Shown: piece by piece, positions 7,661 through 56,545 of the stretch | How the letters are laid out: each line of letters begins with the position of its first letter | How positions within the stretch are numbered: position 1 is the first letter of the stretch | Assembly (NCBI RefSeq): GCF_001547935.1 | Contig: NZ_AP014635.1 | Coordinates: 1,302,001 to 1,366,000, forward strand | DNA length: 64,000 bases | Direction of reading: 5' to 3' | From: Vibrio tritonius | Lineage (GTDB): Bacteria > Pseudomonadota > Gammaproteobacteria > Enterobacterales > Vibrionaceae | Position numbers and translations under genes: made by a program | The notes under the pieces: generated by a model | Database searches by the model: none | Told to the model about the DNA's origin: nothing | What the model saw: the letters and a program-made list of their open reading frames with translations, nothing else

Positions 7661-7722
7661 TCTGTGCCTTGCTTTGAGCGAACGTAGTTTCGCTGAAACA
7701 GCATCATGAGGTTGCTTAGGGA
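7661..7722 (+). repeat. decayed right end of a 266-bp-type element
   Basis: GTGCCTTGC..GAGCGAA..TCGCTGAAACAGCATC.TGAGGTT.CTT.GG matches the last ~62 bp of the intact elements with several substitutions. It abuts the left end of the intact copy at 7723. Confidence 0.7.
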
Positions 7723-7988
7723 TATACCCAAATGACCTCAAGATGCAGACTTCAGAGCTTCATCAACGAGCACAGCTCAAGCTCAATGACGGCAGGAATG
7801 GTTATTCCCTTTCAACGTCATTGGGCGCAGAAATGGGCTTGTTGATGAGCTCCCAAAGGGCGAGTTGTATTCGCTCCTATGCTGCGTTACCGATTTTCTA
7901 CGTAGAATCACTATGTATTCAAATCGGTGCCTTGCCTATGAGCGAATACATTCTCGCTGAAACCGCATCTTGAGGTTACTTGGGTATA
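7723..7988 (+). repeat. 266-bp palindromic intergenic element, copy 1
   Basis: Begins TATACCCAAATGACC and ends GGTTACTTGGGTATA, forming 24-nt imperfect terminal inverted repeats. Inside are two hairpin arms: GAGCTTCATCAACGAGC with GCTTGTTGATGAGCTC, and TGTATTCGCTC with GAGCGAATACA. Other intact copies of the same length are at 12280, 22043, 51927, 53186 and 56280. The short open frame inside it (7743-7973) recurs with the repeat and is not a gene. Confidence 0.95.
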
Positions 7989-10329: not shown

Positions 10330-10428
10330 GATACCCCAATGACCCTATGATACAGAATTTAGAGCGTGATCAACGAGCATAGGTCTAGCTTAATTGCCGA
10401 AGCAATGGCATTGCCTTTCAAGGTAATG
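10330..10428 (+). repeat. decayed left half of a 266-bp-type element
   Basis: GATACCCCAATGACC, TAGAGCG.GATCAACGAGCATAGGTC.AGCT and CCTTTCAAGGTAATGG follow the order of the left half of the intact elements, with many substitutions. The right half is absent. Confidence 0.65.
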
Positions 10429-11999: not shown

Positions 12000-12150
12000 G
12001 ACTCAGCGCTTTTTTAGTAAGCACTGGTCCAGCTCAATGACAGAAGGAATGGTCACTTCCTTGCAAGGTGGATTAACGATGAATTCAAATCAGTACCTTG
12101 CCTAAGACTGAATACGGTCCAACTGAAACAGCATTTTGAGGGCACTTGGA
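12000..12150 (+). repeat. decayed, internally deleted relative of the 266-bp element
   Basis: CAGCTCAATGACAGAAGGAATGGTCA matches the left-arm apex, then the sequence jumps to ATTCAAATCAGTACCTTGCCTA and CTGAAACAGCATTTTGAGGGCACTTGG of the right arm. It precedes the intact copy at 12280. Confidence 0.7.
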
Positions 12151-12279: not shown

Positions 12280-12545
12280 TATACCCAAATGACCTCAAGA
12301 TGCAGACTTCAGAGCTTCATCAACGAGCACAGGTCAAGCTCAATGACGGAAGGAATGGTCATTCCCTTTTAACGTCATTGGGCGCAGAAATGGGCTTGTT
12401 GATGAGCTCCCAAGGGGCGAGTTGTATTCGCTCCTATGCTGCGTTACCGATTTTCTACGTAGAATAACTATGTATTCAAATCGGTGCCTTGCCTATAAGC
12501 GAATACATTCTCGCTGAAACCGCATCTTGAGGTTACTTGGGTATA
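12280..12545 (+). repeat. 266-bp palindromic intergenic element, copy 2
   Basis: Full-length copy from TATACCCAAATGACC to TTACTTGGGTATA, in the same orientation as copy 1 and differing by scattered substitutions. It sits just before the lipid operon, so either that operon's promoter is upstream and the element is transcribed into its leader, or the promoter lies in the ~50 bp after it. An open frame running through it (12186-12467) is an artefact of the repeat. Confidence 0.95.
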
Positions 12546-22042: not shown

Positions 22043-22308
22043 TATACCCAAGTAACCTCAAGATGCGGTTTCAGCGAGAATGTATTCGCTCATAGGCAAG
22101 GCACTGATTTGAATACATAGTTATTCTACGTAGAAAATCAGTAACGCAGCATAGGAGCGAATACAACTCGCCCCTTGGGAGCTCATCAACAAGCCCATTT
22201 CCGCGCCCAATTACGTTGAAAGGGAATAACCATTCCTTCCGTCATTGAGCTTGACCTGTGCTCGTTGATGAAGCTCTGAAGTCTGCATCTTGAGGTCATT
22301 TGGGTATA
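22043..22308 (-). repeat. 266-bp palindromic intergenic element, copy 3
   Basis: Full-length copy in the opposite orientation to copies 1, 2, 4 and 5: it starts TATACCCAAGTAACC and ends GGTCATTTGGGTATA on the plus strand. It lies between the divergent mnmA and gsk genes, ~120 bp upstream of the mnmA start. Confidence 0.95.
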
Positions 22309-25082: not shown

Positions 25083-25270
25083 GAGCTTCGACGTAGAGGC
25101 GCGGTATTGAAAAGTAGTTATGGTTGGAGTGATGTCAATGAACCATAGTGAAAGGCACTATCGCCGAAGTCAGTATGTATATCAACACTGCTGGCTGGGG
25201 TTGCATTCAATAGGTGCAACACTGCCATAGTCTATTATGTTGTTAAACTATGGAGCGCTACTGTAGGGTT
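25083..25270 (+). ncRNA. lysine riboswitch (L box)
   Basis: Shows the ordered conserved blocks of the lysine aptamer: GTAGAGGCGCG (5' side of P1 with the loop-E-type motif), AAAGTAG, GTGAAAGGCA, TCGCCGAAG, GCTGGCTGGGGTTGC, GGTGCAAC, and the closing TGGAGCGCTACTGTAGGG (3' side of P1). The spacing and order agree with the E. coli lysC leader. No clear terminator with a T tract lies between it and the transporter start at 25373, so control is more likely at translation. Genes of the NhaC-type transporter downstream are known L-box targets in gammaproteobacteria. Confidence 0.9.
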
Positions 25271-27129: not shown

Positions 27130-27174
27130 ATGCGAATTTGTGAAATGAACATTCATCATCATCATCATCCCTAA
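27130..27174 (+). CDS. hisL: his operon leader peptide
   Basis: A 14-codon frame, MRICEMNIHHHHHP, with five consecutive CAT histidine codons before a TAA stop. An internal ATG at 27145 could also start it. It is followed by paired hairpins and a terminator, the standard design of his attenuation: starved ribosomes stall on the His codons and favour the antiterminator. E. coli uses seven His codons; five is shorter but adequate. Too short for routine gene finders. Confidence 0.88.
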   Translation: MRICEMNIHHHHHP

Positions 27175-27196
27175 CCAGTCTTTCGGGAGATGAACG

Positions 27197-27291
27197 CATA
27201 CCCGGGAGGCAGGAAGCTCCCGGTGGTCAAATCAAAGTATTGCAAGATTTCAAACCCTCGGGAGCCATAAACCCCGAGGGTTTTTTATTTG
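27197..27291 (+). promoter_or_regulatory. his attenuator (pause/antiterminator hairpins and terminator)
   Basis: CCCGGGAG...CTCCCGG (~27201-27222) is one hairpin; AACCCTCGG...CCGAGGGTT followed by TTTTATTT (27253-27290) is the terminator. The first hairpin's CTCCCGG can also face the CCTCGGGAG of the terminator stem, which allows switching. hisG starts at 27341. Confidence 0.85.
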
Positions 27292-51825: not shown

Positions 51826-51920
51826 TATCATAATGACCTCTTAAGGCAGGATTTAGAGCGGCATCAATAAATACAGGTCAAGCTCAATAGCGAAAGAAAG
51901 GGCAATTCCCTTTCAACCTG
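51826..51920 (+). repeat. decayed left half of a 266-bp-type element
   Basis: CGTATCATAATGACCTC, GATTTAGAGCGGCATCAA, ACAGGTCAAGCTCAAT and GGGCAATTCCCTTTCAACCTG follow the left half of intact elements, with substitutions shared with the decayed copy at 10330 (TTTAGAGCG). The intact copy at 51927 abuts it. Confidence 0.7.
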
Positions 51921-51926
51921 AGTATA

Positions 51927-52192
51927 TATACCCAAATGACCTCAAGATGCAGACTTCAGAGCTTCATCAACGAGCACAGGTTAAGCTCAATGACGGCAGG
52001 AATGGTCATTCCCTTTCAACGTCATTGGGCGCAGAGATGGGCTTGTTGATGAGCTCCCAAAGGGCGAGTTGTATTCGCTCCTATGCTGCGTTACCGATTT
52101 TCTACGTAGAATAACTAGGTATTCAAATCGGTGCCTTGCCTATGAGCGAATACATTCTCGCTGAAACCGCATCTTGAGGTTACTTGGGTATA
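51927..52192 (+). repeat. 266-bp palindromic intergenic element, copy 4
   Basis: Full-length copy, same orientation as copies 1 and 2, from TATACCCAAATGACC to TTACTTGGGTATA. It lies between glgA and the alpha/beta hydrolase gene, joined to the decayed half copy on its left. Confidence 0.95.
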
Positions 52193-52356
52193 AAGCCATA
52201 TAACGTGTTTTATATGGCTTTTTTGTTACTTTGTTGCTGATGCTGTTACGTTGAGAAAAAGTTCAATGTAACAGCGCACAAAGCGAATGAATCTCTGTTT
52301 GGCATCATCCCTGTTTATGGTAGGCTAGCGCCGATTTGACCACAGTAGAGCGCTAC

Positions 52357-53185: not shown

Positions 53186-53451
53186 TATACCCAAATGACC
53201 TCAAGATGCAGACTTCAGAGCTTCATCAACGAGCACAGGTCAAGCTCAATGACGGCAGGAATGATCATTCCCTTTCAACGTCATTGGGCGCAGAAATGGG
53301 CTTGTTGATGAGCTCCCAACGGGCGAGTTGTATTCGCTCCTATGCTGCGTTACCGATTTTCTACGTAGAATAACTAGGTATTCAAATCGGTGCCTTGCCT
53401 ATGAGCGAATACATTCTCGCTGAAACAGCATCTTGAGGTTACTTGGGTATA
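53186..53451 (+). repeat. 266-bp palindromic intergenic element, copy 5
   Basis: Full-length copy 31 bp after the hydrolase gene. It ends CTGAAACAGCATCTTGAGG, the CAG variant at the right terminus, where copies 1, 2 and 4 have CCG. Confidence 0.95.
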
Positions 53452-53604: not shown

Positions 53605-53654
53605 TATACCCATCACCAATTCGCTAAAACAGCATCTTGAGATGACTTGGGTAT
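53605..53654 (+). repeat. 50-bp mini-copy of the element (both ends, no middle)
   Basis: TATACCCATCACC joins directly to AATTCGCTAAAACAGCATC and TTGAGATGACTTGGGTAT. Both termini of the family are kept with nearly the whole interior lost. Confidence 0.7.
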
Positions 53655-54662: not shown

Positions 54663-54767
54663 CCATCGGTAACCCCGCTACCTACCCAGAGCCAGAAAAT
54701 ACCATCTAAGGGTTTAGGCCGGAGGCTTTGCGTCCCACCTTTTCAGATGGTTTGCCCTGTACGTGAC
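54663..54767 (-). ncRNA. c-di-GMP-I (GEMM-I) riboswitch in the tfoY leader
   Basis: Read on the minus strand: GTCACGTACAGGGCAAACC, a stem closed by a GAAA tetraloop, GGTGGGACGCAAAGCCTCC, GGCCTAAACC and, at the 3' end, GGTAGGTAGCGGGG and TTACCGATGG. This order matches the GEMM-I aptamer, including the tetraloop and its receptor, and strongly resembles the V. cholerae Vc2 riboswitch upstream of tfoY. The aptamer ends ~110 nt before the tfoY start. No obvious terminator lies between, so it may act on translation. Confidence 0.95.
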
Positions 54768-56279: not shown

Positions 56280-56545
56280 TATACCCAAGTAACCTCAAGA
56301 TGCTGTTTCAGCGAGAATGTATTCGCTCATAGGCAAGGCACCGATTTGAATACCTAGTTATTCTACGTAGAAAATCGGTAACGTAGCATAGAAGCGAATA
56401 CAACTCGCCCTTTGGGAGCTCATCAACAAGCCCATCTCTGCGCCCAATGACGTTGAAAGGGAATGACCATTCCTGCCGTCATTGAGCTTGACCTGTGCTC
56501 GTTGATGAAGCTCTGAAGTCTGCATCTTGAGGTCATTTGGGTATA
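56280..56545 (-). repeat. 266-bp palindromic intergenic element, copy 6
   Basis: Full-length copy in the same orientation as copy 3. The plus strand starts TATACCCAAGTAACC and ends GGTCATTTGGGTATA. A short remnant AGCATCTTGAGGA abuts it on the left at ~56267. An open frame within (56358-56561) belongs to the repeat. Confidence 0.95.

What the first reader, a model, noticed from the sequence alone, without database searches (positions are those of the whole stretch)
51927..52192. Family of six identical-length 266-bp intergenic elements
Intact copies at 7723-7988, 12280-12545, 22043-22308 (minus), 51927-52192, 53186-53451 and 56280-56545 (minus) are each exactly 266 bp, differ only by scattered substitutions, and lie only between genes. 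They share 24-nt terminal inverted repeats (TATACCC...GGGTATA) and hold no transposase. Uniform length and near-identity point to recent spread by a system that recognises the ends, like a MITE driven in trans. The termini TATACCC/GGGTATA leave open a TA target-site duplication, as made by the IS630 family, but the flanks do not prove it. I do not know whether this family has a published name.
Basis: partly seen in the sequence, partly recalled or inferred. Interest (0 to 1): 0.8.

Follow-up and report, generated by a model that had tools for sequence, protein, structure and literature searches.

The report
Folded jumping DNA of marine bacteria
A gene-free 266-base DNA element sits in dozens of copies in this Vibrio-like genome and, in related forms that fold into the same two-armed shape, in ten bacterial families sampled; it is likely moved by transposases borrowed from IS630-type insertion sequences, and the fold itself is probably needed for it to spread.

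Summary
In detail: six 266-bp copies with ends matched at 22/24 and no long ORF. They belong to a family with at least 40 full-length copies in this genome. Three of four base-resolved empty sites in a sister genome show a TA target; the fourth reads CA. Nine copies in 400 kb here have no counterpart in the matching 400 kb of the sister.

The element is not only a Vibrio repeat. A covariance model matches 131 of 295 genomes of the order; 17 of 20 loci fetched from its stronger matches are full 263-289-nt elements, in ten families. They fold alike: a terminal stem and two long arms that look like inverted relatives. Base pairs are kept by changes on both sides (615 cells against 167 shuffled).

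The ends match one end of IS630 'CCC-type' insertion sequences (21/26, up to 24/26). In another family the same core carries other ends, which match that host's multicopy IS630. So a MITE driven in trans by IS630 transposases is the best reading. Against it: no such transposase was found in this genome, and IS presence does not predict element number.

ERIC/MITEPlu5 is the nearest published relative; it shares ends, not this fold. I found no published name. What selects the fold is open; I favour a role in mobilisation.

The parts
7723..7988 (+). 266-bp element copy
12280..12545 (+). 266-bp element copy
22043..22308 (-). 266-bp element copy
51927..52192 (+). 266-bp element copy used as query
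53186..53451 (+). 266-bp element copy
56280..56545 (-). 266-bp element copy
51927..51950 (+). left 24-nt terminal inverted repeat (terminal TA is the likely target duplication)
   Evidence: TA inferred from other copies
52169..52192 (-). right 24-nt terminal inverted repeat
   Evidence: TA inferred from other copies
51959..52056 (+). left hairpin arm of the three-way fold
52063..52162 (+). right hairpin arm; a covariance model of the right half also fits the left half in reverse complement
52054..52068 (+). conserved centre CTCCCAAAGGGCGAG between the arms
51832..51917 (+). decayed left part of a related copy beside the intact one
10331..10427 (+). decayed fragment of the family
12020..12149 (+). 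decayed fragments of the family
7661..7724 (+). decayed right end of a related copy directly beside copy 7723-7988
53621..53654 (+). decayed right end of a related copy

Best explanation
This is a gene-free mobile element (a MITE) that inserts at TA and is likely mobilised in trans by IS630-family transposases, and its two-armed fold, kept by matched base changes across families, is probably needed for it to propagate. Shown: dispersed near-identical copies, sites occupied here and empty in a sister genome, TA at 3 of 4 base-resolved empty sites (the fourth reads CA), and a fold with strong covariation. Also shown: ends like one end of IS630 elements, and in one other genome the same core with different ends that match one end of that genome's multicopy IS630. 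Inferred: that the IS630 transposase cuts and pastes the element. Inferred: that the transposase comes and goes, probably on plasmids, so copies outlive it. Inferred and least certain: that the folded arms help to bring the two ends together, or help the element persist until a transposase arrives.
For: Empty sites in G266 for copies L022, L014 and L028 read TA, for L019 CA, each fitting a 264-bp insertion (four resolved of seven aligned). Nine full or near-full copies in 400 kb of G000, none at E 1e-3 in the syntenic 400 kb of G266. Some copies identical. IS630 relatives of any subgroup at E 1e-3 in 150 of 329 family genomes. Of 30 fetched loci, all 30 have a right end starting TATACC or TATACT (L188 divergent) and 25 the common left end. 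Both window ends match the IS right end (as in L166) 21/26; four ends of other families, picked by eye, match 22-24/26. Of 1015 background TATAC 26-mers (element-like ones removed) none reaches 20. G545 (family f6): six of the eight best core copies carry ATACCAAT(T/C)AGTATAA...GTGATC ends at both sides, a seventh at the right only. Its resident IS630 (10 transposase hits; 1105-1112 bp in four copies) has one end ATACCAATTAGTAATGATGTGTGATC, 21/26 to the element's right end and 18/26 to its left end; 0 and 3 of 2610 background. The same element end matches the CCC-type end at 11/26. Fold: single-strand MFE -127.7 kcal/mol, z -11.95. Covariation, 44 copies: 94.8% of cells paired against 79.4% shuffled and 33-41% slid; 615 double-change cells against 167. 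Nine families, 23 copies: 93.8% against 68.7%, 465 against 129. Relatives of the transposase lie on 270 plasmid records, 177 called conjugative.
Against: G000 has no match to this transposase at E 1e-3 and one decayed DDE_3 hit. Only one end of each IS is close: the other matches the element at 15-17/26. Among 329 genomes, IS presence (E<=1e-60) does not go with high element number (30 or more end hits): 10 of 56 against 35 of 273, p 0.39 (numbers counted by hand). Of 30 element-bearing genomes in other families 9 have any relative, 5 at E<=1e-40. No element with this genome's exact ends and a transposase was seen among the 9 non-standard ends of G000, of which 5 were read. Whether the fold acts as DNA or RNA is unresolved: 73 GU against 73 AC cells in one alignment, 49 against 24 in the other (per-pair test p 0.47). 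In G260 within-genome pair variants are mostly kept (30 kept, 18 broken). The structures were predicted from the same alignments they were counted on.
Confidence: 0.72

Rival explanations
1. The element is a cis-acting RNA part, kept because its folded transcript changes stability or termination of neighbouring messages, as ERIC does in Yersinia.
For: Strong fold, with lower MFE on the plus than the minus strand in 37 of 44 copies. ERIC acts this way in Yersinia (review passage in PMC2229807). GU exceeds AC cells 49 to 24 in the nine-family alignment.
Against: No orientation preference beside 29 of 30 copies examined (one without a left neighbour in the stretch): 8 same and 7 opposite among co-directional neighbours, 8 convergent, 6 divergent (best-scoring copies, simple ORF finder). 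GU and AC equal at 73 each in the 44-copy alignment. Sister sites are empty, so no old site-specific host role is kept there. No Rfam match up to E 5.
Confidence: 0.25
2. The covariation is a mutational by-product: template switching across the hairpin copies changes from one arm to the other, and no selection on the fold is needed.
For: Long quasi-palindromes are known substrates for such correction (recalled, from no call). Equal GU and AC counts fit single-step paired changes.
Against: Internal loops mostly stay unpaired: in the 3x3 loop at columns 165-167/214-216 only 5 of 132 cells are Watson-Crick; other loops tested ranged from 1 of 44 to 40 of 88, and 29 of 44 for one single mismatch. 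Young copies in G000 and G255 carry mostly pair-breaking variants, 24 of 38, with 1 double-sided cell in 68. G260 is less clear, with 15 double-sided cells.
Confidence: 0.15
3. The driver is not IS630 but an unidentified transposase; the likeness of the ends is shared descent long ago or convergence.
For: No match to the transposase in G000 or in 21 of 30 element-bearing genomes of other families; no association with element number.
Against: End identity above background, TA at the empty sites, and the change of ends to match the resident IS630 in G545.
Confidence: 0.2
4. These are simply ERIC elements of Vibrio.
For: ERIC begins TATACCC, duplicates TA and is reported from V. cholerae (passages in PMC2267715 and PMC2759123).
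Against: Half the length; interior similarity is within the shuffled range; the covariance model gives an E. coli ERIC copy only 9.3 bits, E 0.009, mostly from its end.
Confidence: 0.05

Closest known systems
ERIC / RU-1 / MITEEc1 and MITEPlu5 of Photorhabdus
   Same: TATACCC ends, TA duplication, no transposase, mostly intergenic, strong fold; MITEPlu5 ends resemble CCC-type IS630 (PMC6267812 section 13)
   Different: 123-127 bp; no significant interior similarity of E. coli ERIC to this family; MITEPlu5 itself was not compared by sequence
CCC-type IS630 insertion sequences (ISPlu3, ISPlu8, ISPlu19 as named in PMC6267812; likely relatives here L132, L162-L191)
   Same: right end 21-24/26 identical to element ends, TA at the ends
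   Different: About 1.1 kb with a transposase; common left end TATACCCGTGATCATTGAAG is only 15-17/26 alike; the ISPlu sequences themselves were not compared
RUP of pneumococcus with IS630-Spn1
   Same: MITE proposed to be moved by an IS630 transposase at TA (review PMC2229807, passages)
   Different: 107 bp, other host; not compared by sequence here
Correia/NEMIS elements
   Same: Small element with TIRs and TA ends (review PMC2229807, passages)
   Different: Other hosts; not compared by sequence here

Membership tests
MITE (non-autonomous miniature element) | short, no transposase, terminal inverted repeats | tested here: met
   266 bp, 22/24 inverted repeats, no long ORF within
MITE (non-autonomous miniature element) | dispersed, mobile copies with target duplication | tested here: met
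   empty sites with TA in 3 of 4 resolved, CA in one; copies absent from sister stretch
MITE (non-autonomous miniature element) | an autonomous partner in the same genome with the same ends | tested here: not met
   no match to the IS630 transposase in G000; 5 of 9 non-standard ends read
passenger of IS630 (CCC-type) | ends like the IS ends | tested here: met
   21/26 to the IS right end, 22-24/26 for four ends of other families; background maximum 19/26; left end 15-17/26 only
passenger of IS630 (CCC-type) | moved by the IS630 transposase | not testable with these tools
   needs a mobility assay
passenger of IS630 (CCC-type) | co-occurrence with the IS | tested here: not met
   10/56 against 35/273, p 0.39; 9 of 30 in other families
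ERIC | 127-bp interior with one hairpin | tested here: not met
ERIC | TATACCC ends and TA duplication | tested here: met
known Rfam RNA | match to a curated model | tested here: not met
   no match up to E 5 for 51900-52220

The most novel reading that the evidence does not exclude
A structure-first mobile element: one two-armed DNA fold, older than the bacterial families that carry it, survives by exchanging its ends for those of whichever IS630 is at hand, and is cut from a folded single strand or cruciform in which the terminal stem presents both ends together. What is inherited is the fold, not the sequence or the transposase.
Probability: 0.25. Interest if true: 0.88.

Novelty: new variant of a known kind. 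Interest (0 to 1): 0.7.

Why it matters
Bacterial MITEs are usually read as shrunken leftovers of an insertion sequence whose interior does not matter (general knowledge). Here the interior is the conserved part: a full-length fold kept by compensatory change in an alignment over nine bacterial families, while the ends vary and in some hosts are exchanged. That makes an old question testable, namely why ERIC-like repeats are so strongly structured. It also gives a concrete candidate driver, IS630 CCC-type transposases, relatives of which travel on plasmids.

Tried and rejected
Search for a full transposon with exactly these ends in G000: the pattern for non-standard interiors gave 9 places; the five read were a variant of the element or end-only scars of 39 or 54 nt. 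Pairing of ends in 400 kb of G000 gave one main length class (eight pairs of 266, one of 265); other distances up to 4 kb are scattered. Interior homology with ERIC: not significant. Strand preference of the fold and of insertion: none that is significant per pair or per copy. Phages: no match at E 1e-5. Literature: no paper naming this family among the papers listed (open-access full text only; some searches listed only a part of their hits; ISfinder itself could not be searched).

Errors of mine: (plasmid searches) used coordinates shifted by 125 bases, so each covered only about half of an element; one search used the same wrong stretch for one row and was replaced. One search spent the genome-contig scan on a pattern with a gap two bases too long, so it found 2 stretches only. 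Organism names for the G-handle families are therefore mostly unknown.

Rows dropped before counts: 3 of 41 G000 copies not 266 nt, 3 of 32. One search examined 56 loci with a length filter of 255-290: 54 kept, L210 had no full element, L216 was a duplicate; A1 took 44 of the 54. A4 left out, of the 20 loci, L333, L340, L345, L351 (281-289 nt), L344 (176 nt) and L349, L350 (own family). Of ten copies with both flanks matched in G266, seven were aligned base by base; four were resolved and L003, L013, L015 were not. The loci were taken from the stronger listed matches, not at random.

Full report
OBSERVATION. The six copies are present as described: 266 bp each, 254-262/266 identical, ends 92% complementary over 24 nt in the copy tested. 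In the ORF list they lie between long ORFs; two 93-aa ORFs overlap copies and look spurious. In the whole genome G000 (5.22 Mb, two contigs) 40 of 243 first-look candidates were scored; of the 42 matches, 40 were full length. The right end occurs 134 times forward and 116 reverse within 3 mismatches, the reversed pattern never. A plasmid of Vibrio tritonius carries a 98.5% copy, so G000 may be that species or a close one; this was not confirmed.

MOBILITY. Of 227 genus genomes the closest over one 2.7-kb gene stretch is G266 (83%). In 400 kb of G000 there are nine full or near-full copies; the syntenic 400 kb of G266 has none at E 1e-3, nor do 800 kb at E 1e-2, though 8 end-like matches within 6 mismatches remain in the first 400 kb (1 in the reversed control). 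G266 does hold copies elsewhere (13 matches). Ten of 30 copies had both flanks matched in the fetched G266 stretches. Seven were aligned base by base and four resolved: L022, L014 and L028 show TA at the empty site, L019 shows CA, each fitting a 264-bp insertion with duplication of a TA. Among 29 sampled copies of exactly 266 nt some are identical and the mean pairwise difference is 5.6 bases (mostly the best-scoring copies), so movement was recent on that scale. Listed copies in G255 are 90-92% identical to the query though the gene stretch is 76%, and one G266 copy is 97% against 83%. This suggests transfer between species or strong constraint.

DISTRIBUTION. By blast, 90 of 197 genomes of the bacterial family match at E 1e-3. 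By the 20-nt end pattern with up to 2 mismatches, 236 of 329 do, very unevenly (0 to 469 hits per genome); by my hand count the reversed control has 12 hits in all. In 54 usable loci of 56 examined, full copies at 66-98% identity to the G000 consensus are 264-268 nt, one 284 (a length filter of 255-290 was set). A covariance model of the right half (R1; its structure includes a small hairpin in the end that is not part of the full fold) matched 131 of 295 genomes and 40 of 99 genera of the order (no negative control was run, and weaker matches were not checked). Of 20 loci fetched from its stronger matches, under ten family labels, 17 are full 263-289-nt elements with TATAC ends, L339 and L341 have the same core with other ends, and L344 is short at 176 nt. 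Named hits are Vibrio and Photobacterium records of the plasmid collection, a Photobacterium frigidiphilum contig and a Thalassotalea contig (Colwelliaceae).

FOLD. A single strand folds at -127.7 kcal/mol as RNA (z -11.95) and -68 as DNA (z -11.2); none of 200 shuffles folds as well in either case. The consensus of 44 copies (A1) is a terminal stem of the two ends with two long arms, 90 pairs, 60 of them with changes on both sides. Named-structure counts give 94.8% of cells paired (shuffled 79.4, slid 33-41), covariation score 0.436 (shuffled 0.146, slid at most 0.078), and 615 double-change cells (shuffled 167). Related sequences can exceed shuffles without structure, so the slid control and the nine-family alignment matter: there 93.8% against 68.7 shuffled and 33-43 slid, with 465 double-change cells against 129. 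The structure was predicted from the same alignments, which favours it over slid versions. The right-half model also fits the left half of all nine full or near-full copies of the 400 kb in reverse complement at 64-80 bits. Part of that score is the shared end, so 'inverted relatives' is likely rather than proven. Young copies within a genome show little compensation: in G000 and G255 14 pair variants are kept and 24 broken, with 1 double-sided cell. G260 has 30 kept and 18 broken, with 15 double-sided cells. Pooled, 44 to 42 differs from the between-genome cells 728 to 207 (p 3e-7) but not from distinct between-genome types 167 to 115 (p 0.21). I read this as selection on the lineages that go on spreading, with that caveat. 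Internal loops mostly stay unpaired (5 of 132 Watson-Crick cells in one 3x3 loop; others vary), which template correction of a palindrome would not keep. Wobble counts do not settle the strand: 73 GU and 73 AC cells in 76 pairs common to both strands, 49 and 24 in the nine-family set. Paired and unpaired columns are equally variable (mean entropy 0.72 each).

DRIVER. IS630-type transposases (PF13358) occur in 13 of 16 element-bearing genomes searched; G000 has one decayed hit. In G085 a 1111-bp IS with an intact 345-aa transposase, NCBIfam IS630 and Pfam DDE_3, ends TATACCCGTGATCATTGAAAATGC and, on the other side, TATACCCAGTCTACTTCAAAATGC. Relatives in the family share these ends (30 right ends of 30, one divergent; 25 common left ends of 30). 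The window's ends match the IS right end (as in L166) 21/26; one end each of L345, L346, L347 and L348 (f6, f10, f13; picked by eye) match 22-24/26; the background maximum is 19/26 of 1015, element-like 26-mers removed. The IS left end is only 15-17/26 alike. In G545 the element core has ends of another type. They match one end of the resident multicopy IS630 at 21/26 (right element end) and 18/26 (left), its other end at 15/26, and the CCC end at 11/26. Six dispersed copies carry them at both ends, so the ends follow the local IS630 while the core stays. In G467 several copies have a further end type, ATACCAATGG; its IS630 was not searched with a fitting query. Against a simple pairing stand the lack of a match in G000, no association between IS presence and element number (p 0.39), and no match in 21 of 30 element-bearing genomes elsewhere. 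Relatives of the transposase are on 270 plasmid records, 177 called conjugative, so a passing supply is plausible but not shown.

KNOWN RELATIVES. ERIC shares TATACCC ends and TA duplication (passages in PMC2759123). PMC6267812 (section 13 read) reports that MITEPlu5, an ERIC relative of 123 bp with 552 complete copies in Photorhabdus TT01, resembles CCC-type IS630 at its ends; the ERIC-IS630 link is therefore already in print. E. coli ERIC ends match the Vibrionaceae IS ends here at 19/26 at best (background 1 of 1015). The interior of ERIC does not match this family. The review PMC2229807 (passages read) gives RUP and IS630-Spn1 as the precedent for trans-mobilisation. PMC2267715 (passages) reports a V. 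cholerae ERIC model of 103 nt. None of the papers listed in my searches showed a name for the 266-bp two-armed family; subscription papers and ISfinder were out of reach.

VERDICT. A MITE driven in trans is supported, by IS630 transposases most likely. What is new, as far as searched, is the long two-armed form, its reach over ten families, its strongly covarying fold and the exchange of its ends. The mechanism by which the fold matters is inferred.

Noticed in passing
window 25086-25268, 27153-27289, 54664-54765: Rfam matches: lysine riboswitch, histidine operon leader, c-di-GMP-I-GGC riboswitch on the minus strand.
   Followed up: no
window 52193-52224: Right after copy 51927-52192 lies an inverted repeat followed by a T run (AAGCCATATAA...TTATATGGCTTTTTT), so the copy seems to sit between a gene end and its terminator.
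   Followed up: no
G207, G383, G262, G089 and G000 loci such as L258, L262, L268, L271, L272, L276, L279, L282, L286, L287: End-only scars of 33-61 nt, as if the folded arms had been lost by deletion; a 39-nt form begins identically at four places in G000 (three read in full), a 33-nt form recurs in several genomes.
   Followed up: partly
genus-wide: Many genomes have exactly one end-like match, more often than the reversed control; it may be one conserved site or an unrelated sequence.
   Followed up: no
G311:C1:1027883-1028148: One copy is 87% identical to the window's form while the other full-length copies listed in that genome are 71-74%, as if a second subfamily had entered.
   Followed up: no
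L289 3021-3188 (plasmid pMA35): An ORF inside an element copy is annotated as a hypothetical protein, the kind of annotation that PMC6267812 warns of for MITEPlu5.
   Followed up: no
L006, L013, L034 left flanks: Some copies sit directly against an end-like sequence ...GGGTA, as if inserted at the TA end of another copy.
   Followed up: no
L340 (282 nt), L333 and L345 (281 nt), L351 (289 nt): Longer members carry an extra short hairpin in or between the arms.
   Followed up: no
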